Source of the DNA: an uncultured Spirochaetaceae bacterium
GTDB taxonomy: Bacteria; Spirochaetota; Spirochaetia; Sphaerochaetales; Sphaerochaetaceae
Length of the DNA: 59,452 bases
Direction of reading: 5' to 3'
Assembly (NCBI GenBank): GCA_944389075.1
Contig: CALXLA010000008.1
Span: forward strand, 1 to 59,452
Shown piece after piece: positions 53,094 to 53,936 of this stretch. Within the stretch, counting starts at the first letter, position 1. Every line of letters starts with the position of its first letter. Position numbers and translations under genes: made by a program. The notes under the pieces are model-generated. The model made no database searches, was not told the origin of the DNA, and saw nothing but the letters and a program-made list of their open reading frames with translations.

Positions 53094-53118
53094 AAAAAGA
53101 CCCCGGCTTCCCGGGGTC
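53094..53118 (-). terminator. Terminator downstream of rpsD and the structured region
   Basis: On the minus strand GACCCCGG-GAAG-CCGGGGTC is followed by TTTTT. Confidence 0.95.
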
Positions 53119-53120
53119 CT

Positions 53121-53241
53121 GCATGCCTCTGTACGTTTCCTGTTTGAGGGCAGCCGTCAGGAAACGCTTCCAGGATGGAACGATATTGGAATGTGGTTCG
53201 TATCCTTTCTCTTCCCCTTGTGGAGAGGGACAAGGCATAGC
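53121..53241 (-). ncRNA. Candidate structured RNA or structured 3' UTR of rpsD
   Basis: Between the rpsD stop and its terminator lie about 135 bases with no gene but strong pairing. An eight-base closing stem with one bulge joins 53233-53241 to 53121-53128. Inside it are a perfect nine-base stem (53134-53142 with 53158-53166) and a bulged stem (53177-53183 with 53198-53205). I see no match to 6S, SRP, RNase P or tmRNA signatures. No clear promoter of its own is seen, so it may be cleaved from the rpsD mRNA. Confidence 0.5.
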
Positions 53242-53253
53242 TATCGAAGACTT

Positions 53254-53847
53254 TTACTTTGAGTAGAACTCGACAACGAGCTGGTCATTGACCTGCACTG
53301 GGATCTCCGATCTCTCTGGAAGTCTGACGAACTTGCCTGAGAATTCCTCTTCGTTTCTCTCGAAGTATGGGAGATTGAATGCCGGGTGGCCGAGGAAGCA
53401 ATCCCTGAAGTGCTCATTGCTTCTGGACTTCTCCTTGAGGGAGATGACATCGCCGACCTTGATCTGATAAGAAGGAATGTCGACCTTCTTGCCATTGACG
53501 AGGATGTGTCCGTGTGTAACGAGCTGACGTGCGAGTCTGATTGAGTTGCCGAAACCGATGCGGTATACAGCATTGTCAAGTCTTCTCTCAAGTGAGATGA
53601 CAAGAGCATCGCCTGTAGCCATGCTGGACTTGAGAGCCGATTCGAAATACCTTCTCATCTGCTTCTCAAGGATTCCATAGTAAGCTCTGAGCTTCTGCTT
53701 CTCAGTCAGCTGCCTGCTGTAGTCAGTTGGCTTCTTCCTCTTTGCGAAAGCTGGGCTGTTTGCCCTGTTCATTGCCTTGGGGTGTCCACATGTATTCACA
53801 CCAAGTCTTCTGCACTGCTTAAATCTAGGACCTGTGTATCTTGCCAT
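53254..53847 (-). CDS. rpsD: 30S ribosomal protein S4
   Basis: S4 nucleates assembly of the small subunit. The 197-residue protein begins [17 protein letters not shown], followed by the S4 RNA-binding domain ([37 protein letters not shown]). GGAGGG precedes the ATG. It stands alone, away from the usual ribosomal operon, with its own promoter and terminator. Confidence 0.98.
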
Positions 53848-53883
53848 AGATTTTACCCTCCAGTAAAGTGACAGTTTTATCGA

Positions 53884-53936
53884 CTGTGCATAAGCACAGC
53901 TTTAACAATCTACATTGCAAAGCGGTCCAATGTCAA
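53884..53936 (-). promoter_or_regulatory. rpsD promoter and leader hairpin
   Basis: On the minus strand TTGACA is followed by 18 bp and TAGATT (53907-53912). The hairpin CTGTGC-TTAT-GCACAG (53884-53899) would form at the very 5' end of the transcript. Confidence 0.6.

What the first reader, a model, noticed from the sequence alone, without database searches (positions are those of the whole stretch)
53094..53241. Candidate new structured RNA 3' of rpsD
The 135 bases between the rpsD stop and a very strong terminator hold a bulged eight-base closing stem, a perfect nine-base inner hairpin and a second inner hairpin. Most gene gaps here are near zero, so a retained, highly paired gap is unusual. 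It could be a 3'-UTR-derived small RNA or an element for S4-dependent control. It does not show the signatures of known housekeeping RNAs.
Basis: partly seen in the sequence, partly recalled or inferred. Interest (0 to 1): 0.6.

Follow-up and report, generated by a model that had tools for sequence, protein, structure and literature searches.

The report
New structured RNA after rpsD gene
The stretch after the gene for ribosomal protein S4 in a group of gut spirochaetes makes a previously undescribed folded RNA with three hairpin loops that hardly ever change, kept next to that one gene in dozens of species and probably used to control its output or that of other genes.

Summary
On the rpsD (minus) strand, between the rpsD stop and its terminator, lies a four-way-junction RNA: closing stem P1, hairpins P2, P3 and P4, and loops CCACA, CAUUCC and CGGCU[G/A]CCCUC. 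I read it in 58 loci from two sister genera of Spirochaetales (the window's genus and the Bullifex/Aphodenecus genus), each time directly after rpsD. Stems vary by compensatory change (22/22 modelled pairs). With a null that keeps the tree, 6 of 4656 column pairs are significant and all 6 lie in the structure. A covariance model finds one copy per genome in 45/48 and 13/16 genomes of the two genera, and none in the other 131 genera of the class sampled. No Rfam 15 family matches. Downstream genes differ, so the element belongs to rpsD. The mechanism is not shown. I favour a C-rich-loop 3'-UTR regulator: loop L4 (UGCCCUC) can pair with the invariant rpsD Shine-Dalgarno sequence GAGGGUA, as in Staphylococcus aureus icaR, or a processed sRNA does so in trans. 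That pairing is not exceptional against other genes, so confidence in the mechanism is modest. A protein-binding role (S4 or another) remains open.

The parts
53254..53847 (-). rpsD, ribosomal protein S4 (host gene of the element)
   Evidence: NCBIfam NF003717/TIGR01017, E 5e-72
53907..53936 (-). conserved sigma-70-type promoter of rpsD (TTGACA...TAGATT)
   Evidence: conserved upstream of rpsD in relatives; coordinates; function inferred
53852..53867 (-). rpsD ribosome-binding site UUUACUGGAGGGUAAA (SD in loop of a weak hairpin); GGAGGGU invariant in both genera
   Evidence: only start in the window with GGAGGGU
53246..53252 (-). AGUCUUC leader right after the rpsD stop, conserved in most of the window's genus
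   Evidence: alignment
53233..53241 (-). P1 5' strand of closing stem (one bulged U)
   Evidence: fold; P1 helix varies in sequence but is re-formed across relatives
53215..53229 (-). P2 hairpin with loop motif CCACA (53219-53223)
53173..53205 (-). P3 hairpin with loop motif CAUUCC (53188-53193)
53134..53166 (-). P4 hairpin: nine-base stem with loop L4 ACGGCUGCCCUCAAA (53143-53157)
53121..53128 (-). P1 3' strand of closing stem
53094..53118 (-). intrinsic terminator of the rpsD transcript (stem plus U-run; stem sequence unrelated between relatives)
   Evidence: sequence and fold; other stems in relatives

Best explanation
It is the 3' UTR of a one-gene rpsD transcript and forms a so far undescribed conserved RNA: a four-way junction (P1-P4) showing three near-invariant C-rich hairpin loops. 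Shown: structure, conservation, linkage to rpsD, narrow distribution. Inferred mechanism: the RNA, within the mRNA or cut free as a sRNA of about 130-160 nt, base-pairs through its loops to Shine-Dalgarno regions. The first target is rpsD's own invariant GAGGGUA, matched by UGCCCUC or UACCCUC in loop L4, so that S4 synthesis feeds back on itself. Confidence: about 0.97 that it is a real conserved structured RNA acting with rpsD, about 0.35 for the SD-pairing feedback mechanism.
For: Covariation: 22 of 22 modelled pairs change on both sides, 91.7% of cells paired versus 66% in shuffles and 40-50% when slid. The MAFFT-only seed agrees. Tree-preserving null: 6 significant pairs, all in the structure, none outside. 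Standard pairs include 53 G-U against 32 A-C mismatches, which fits the rpsD strand. Loops kept in all 58 loci apart from single-base variants. One copy per genome beside rpsD, with unrelated downstream sequence. rpsD has its own promoter, and its SD context GGAGGGU is the same in every rpsD start read in both genera. L4's one variable base is G or A, facing U in that SD, so pairing is kept. Precedent: the icaR 3'-UTR UCCCCUG motif pairs with its own SD (PMC3868564); OppZ and CarZ repress their own operons (PMC7821165).
Against: L4 pairing to the rpsD SD ranks only 8th of 54 gene starts in the window, as expected of any anti-SD-like loop. RNAcofold, which cannot represent loop contacts, does not choose it. 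Only 7 of L4's 13 conserved bases are explained, and CCACA and CAUUCC are not. The diverged copy in L118 weakens the pairing while the SD is unchanged. No expression data.
Confidence: 0.4

Rival explanations
1. A trans-acting 3'-UTR-derived small RNA: cut from rpsD mRNA, it uses three C-rich loops to bind SD regions of many mRNAs (like C-rich-loop sRNAs of Firmicutes), coupling other genes to ribosome synthesis; rpsD is source, not target.
For: Three separate unpaired C-rich loops, invariant while stems drift; own terminator; several window genes pair with L4 at least as well as rpsD.
Against: No conserved long target: exact complements of the 11-nt L4 core in 48 genomes lie inside unrelated genes, with one pair recurring in two close species. 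No promoter of its own was looked for systematically; no RNA-seq.
Confidence: 0.3
2. A protein-binding element: S4 (or a loop-reading RNA-binding protein) binds the four-way junction and its loops and controls decay or translation of rpsD mRNA; S4 autogenous control placed at the 3' end.
For: Strict linkage to rpsD in both genera and absence from genomes with another rpsD type; invariant loops on a fixed scaffold; S4 is an autogenous repressor elsewhere (leaders listed in PMC7247131).
Against: All S4 elements listed there are 5' leaders. The resemblance of L4 plus SD to 16S helix 18 fails with this clade's own 16S, which has no GGAGGGU.
Confidence: 0.25
3. Only a stability/termination structure: the hairpins shield the 3' end of rpsD mRNA from exonucleases.
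For: It sits directly before the terminator.
Against: Loops rather than stems are invariant, folding energy is ordinary (mean z -0.84), and a separate terminator already serves as barrier.
Confidence: 0.05
4. Chance pairing in an ordinary intergenic gap.
For: Single-sequence folding z is only about -1.4 to -2.0.
Against: Covariation and distribution.
Confidence: 0.005

Closest known systems
Staphylococcus aureus icaR 3'-UTR (5'-3' UTR pairing, UCCCCUG anti-SD motif; PMC3868564)
   Same: A C-rich motif in the 3' UTR complementary to the SD of the same mRNA.
   Different: Here the motif lies in an invariant loop of a covarying four-way junction with two more invariant loops, in a ribosomal-protein gene, kept across two genera; the pairing is not tested.
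OppZ/CarZ-type 3'-UTR-derived autoregulatory sRNAs (Vibrio cholerae; described in PMC7821165)
   Same: RNA at the 3' end of a transcript that could be cut free and repress its own operon.
   Different: No processing, chaperone or target shown here; different sequence and fold.
Ribosomal protein S4 leaders (alpha operon, Bacillus rpsD, and leaders in PMC7247131)
   Same: Structured RNA tied to rpsD.
   Different: Those are 5' leaders; this is 3' of the stop codon and matches no Rfam 15 model.
C-rich-loop sRNAs of Firmicutes (RsaE, LhrC type; from own knowledge)
   Same: Several unpaired C-rich loops that suit SD regions.
   Different: No sequence or structural relation found; different phylum.

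Membership tests
any Rfam 15 family | match at or near the family's gathering score | tested here: not met
   No match in the element for the window; no match up to E=1 in seven relatives
icaR-like 5'-3' UTR regulated mRNA | 3'-UTR motif complementary to own SD | tested here: met
   UGCCCUC/UACCCUC against GAGGGUA, 7 bp with one G-U or all Watson-Crick; not exceptional against other genes
icaR-like 5'-3' UTR regulated mRNA | pairing occurs and represses translation / gives an RNase III substrate | not testable with these tools
   needs reporter, toeprint and RNase III assays; RNAcofold cannot represent the loop contact
3'-UTR-derived sRNA | located between stop codon and intrinsic terminator of a coding gene | tested here: met
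3'-UTR-derived sRNA | a discrete stable RNA of 100-160 nt | not testable with these tools
   no transcriptome data available
S4 autogenous leader | 5'-UTR position upstream of the regulated operon | tested here: not met
   element is 3' of rpsD in all 58 loci
S4 autogenous element by 16S mimicry (helix 18) | shared sequence with the S4 site of the clade's own 16S | tested here: not met
   clade 16S helix 18 reads CGGCUAACUACGUG...UACGUAGGGG; no GGAGGGU and no CCCUCA in 16S; only CGGCU(A) shared
housekeeping RNAs (SRP RNA, RNase P RNA) | the genome's copy would be this locus | tested here: not met
   SRP RNA and RNase P RNA found elsewhere in 8 of 8 genomes
6S RNA | match to RF00013 | tested here: not met
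   no match in 8 genomes, at this locus or elsewhere; four-way junction is unlike the 6S rod

The most novel reading that the evidence does not exclude
The first ribosomal-protein gene known to be feedback-controlled by a conserved structured RNA in its 3' UTR, either by S4 binding the junction or by L4 closing the rpsD start site, having arisen when this spirochaete lineage took up a clostridial-type rpsD.
Probability: 0.3. Interest if true: 0.72.

Novelty: new variant of a known kind. Interest (0 to 1): 0.5.

Why it matters
Ribosomal-protein genes in bacteria are normally controlled through 5' leaders. A highly conserved, covarying RNA fixed to the 3' end of an r-protein gene in two genera, with invariant loops, suggests 3'-end control of ribosome synthesis or a sRNA whose dose follows it. 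It gives a ready alignment and covariance model for an RNA family not in Rfam, in gut spirochaetes whose RNA regulation is almost unstudied, with one cultured member (Bullifex porci) in which to test it.

Tried and rejected
Rfam at gathering and lax thresholds: no match. 16S helix-18/S4-site mimicry of L4 plus SD: attractive with the E. coli sequence from memory, dropped because the clade's own 16S lacks GGAGGGU (47, 51). L4 (CGGCUGC) pairing with the 16S 530 loop GCAGCCG: a 7-mer is expected by chance about once in eleven 16S lengths, and the A variant breaks it; not pursued. Long conserved antisense target for L4: 37 non-self hits of GAGGGCAGCCG in 48 genomes, inside unrelated coding regions. 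Duplex energy ranking of gene starts: rpsD 8th of 54. RNAcofold: uninformative for loop contacts, rpsD 43rd of 54. rpsB as a control for SD conservation: its GGAG core is conserved too, but the following bases vary, so SD invariance in rpsD is only mild support. Coding: distances stop-L3 and L3-L4 fall in all three phases, against a conserved ORF. Riboswitch for the downstream gene: downstream sequence is unrelated in relatives and a terminator intervenes. Dimer through GGCUGCC: broken by the GGCUACC variant.

Full report
Location and anatomy. The window is contig C8 of a 2.23 Mb Spirochaetales genome. rpsD lies on the minus strand at 53254-53847 and is a clear S4 gene. Reading that strand after the stop codon there is a short leader (AGUCUUC), then a closing stem P1 (GC[U]AUGCCU / AGGCAUGC), hairpin P2 (loop CCACA), hairpin P3 (loop CAUUCC), hairpin P4 (nine perfect pairs, loop ACGGCUGCCCUCAAA) and an intrinsic terminator at 53118-53094. 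Single-sequence folding energy is only mildly unusual, so this alone would not have been convincing.

Relatives. rpsD was found in 98 of 100 related genomes and in named contigs including Bullifex porci and Candidatus Aphodenecus pullistercoris. Immediately after the rpsD stop, all species of the window's genus and its sister genus whose sequence I read carry the same RNA: stems of different sequence, loops the same, then a terminator of unrelated sequence. In 58 loci the loops read CGGCU[G/A]CCCUC (one copy has lost one base), CAUUCC, and CCACA with rare single-base variants. The search expression there required the second and third motifs, but no locus tried was lost. Distances between the parts fall in all three reading phases, so this is not a conserved reading frame. 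Treponema MAGs whose rpsD is about 60% identical, and clostridia, lack it.

Covariation. A covariance model from ten MAFFT-aligned sequences found the others. On the resulting alignment (48 distinct sequences) every one of 22 pairs has changes on both sides, 91.7% of cells pair against 66.1% in shuffles, and the covariation score is 0.69 against 0.23; sliding the partner by 1-3 columns destroys it. The seed alignment, not fitted to the structure, shows the same. Because shuffles ignore kinship, I also ran a null that replays the same substitutions along a FastTree tree: 6 of 4656 column pairs are significant at E<0.05, all six in the structure (one in P2, two in P3, three in P4) and none outside it. 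The alignment for that test had been fitted to the model. P1 is not in the model. Per-sequence helices are better than shuffles (27 of 58 at or below 0.1) and differ completely between groups, for example CUUGCC/GGCAAG, GGGAUACG/UGUAUCCC and GGGUUUC/GAAACCC.

Distribution. One copy per genome: 45 of 48 genomes of the window's genus and 13 of 16 of the sister genus, none in the other 75 genomes (20 genera) of the family, and none in the other 131 genera among 395 genomes of the class. The three missing in the genus have no rpsD in the assembly or only a fragment of it. One of the three missing in the sister genus (L118) has a diverged copy that the model scores weakly. A second weak hit in G009 is identical in sequence to sister-genus copies and sits at the end of a 3.5 kb contig, so it is probably contamination.

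What it is not. No Rfam 15 family matches at gathering or lax thresholds. SRP RNA and RNase P RNA are encoded elsewhere in all eight genomes tested, and 6S RNA was not detected anywhere in them. It is not a leader of the downstream gene (deformylase def in the window), because the downstream sequence differs between relatives and a terminator separates them. Paper searches gave no description, though the library is open-access only.

How it may work. rpsD here is a one-gene unit with a conserved promoter. The stretch (C/U)GGAGGGU before the start codon is the same in every rpsD start read in both genera, and no other start in the window has GGAGGGU. The L4 loop contains UGCCCUC, or UACCCUC in some lineages, which can pair with GAGGGUA. 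That is the arrangement shown experimentally for icaR, where a 3'-UTR C-rich motif pairs with the SD of its own mRNA and blocks translation (PMC3868564). 3'-UTR-derived sRNAs acting on their own transcripts are also known (PMC7821165). I therefore favour SD pairing with feedback on rpsD. The steps 'conserved RNA' and 'complementarity present' are shown; 'pairing occurs', 'S4 synthesis falls' and 'cis or trans' are inferred. Against it, any anti-SD-like loop pairs with many starts (rpsD 8th of 54), cofolding does not select it, and two of the three loops stay unexplained. An S4-binding or other protein-binding element remains a strong rival. A 16S helix-18 mimic was considered and failed on the clade's own 16S. 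No long conserved antisense target for L4 exists in the genus.

Verdict. A real, undescribed, lineage-specific structured RNA family bound to the 3' end of rpsD; new as a family, and a variant of known regulatory 3' UTRs. The mechanism is open, with experiments named that would settle it.

Noticed in passing
53254-53847: The S4 of this genus and its sister genus is about 57-62% identical to clostridial S4 and to a few Treponema MAGs but only about 40-47% to S4 of the other genera of its family; rpsD looks replaced by horizontal transfer, and the 3' RNA is found only with this version.
   Followed up: partly
53852-53936: The rpsD 5' region is itself strongly conserved: promoter, a 5'-end hairpin GCUGUGC..GCACAG, and UUUAC-UGGAGG-GUAAA that can hold the SD in a small loop; a possible second control element.
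   Followed up: partly
53246-53252: AGUCUUC(N)AUAG directly after the rpsD stop is conserved in most of the window's genus but not in the sister genus; perhaps a processing site.
   Followed up: no
53143-53229: All three loops of the RNA end in or contain a C-rich NCA motif (CCACA, (N)CAUUCC, CCCUCA), which would also suit several copies of one RNA-binding protein.
   Followed up: no
L173: A 3.5 kb contig of genome G009 carries a copy identical in sequence to the sister-genus version besides the genome's own copy: probably MAG contamination.
   Followed up: partly
whole genomes G000, G014, G034, G046, G020, G058, G112, G103: No 6S RNA detected with RF00013 in any of eight genomes of the two genera.
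   Followed up: partly
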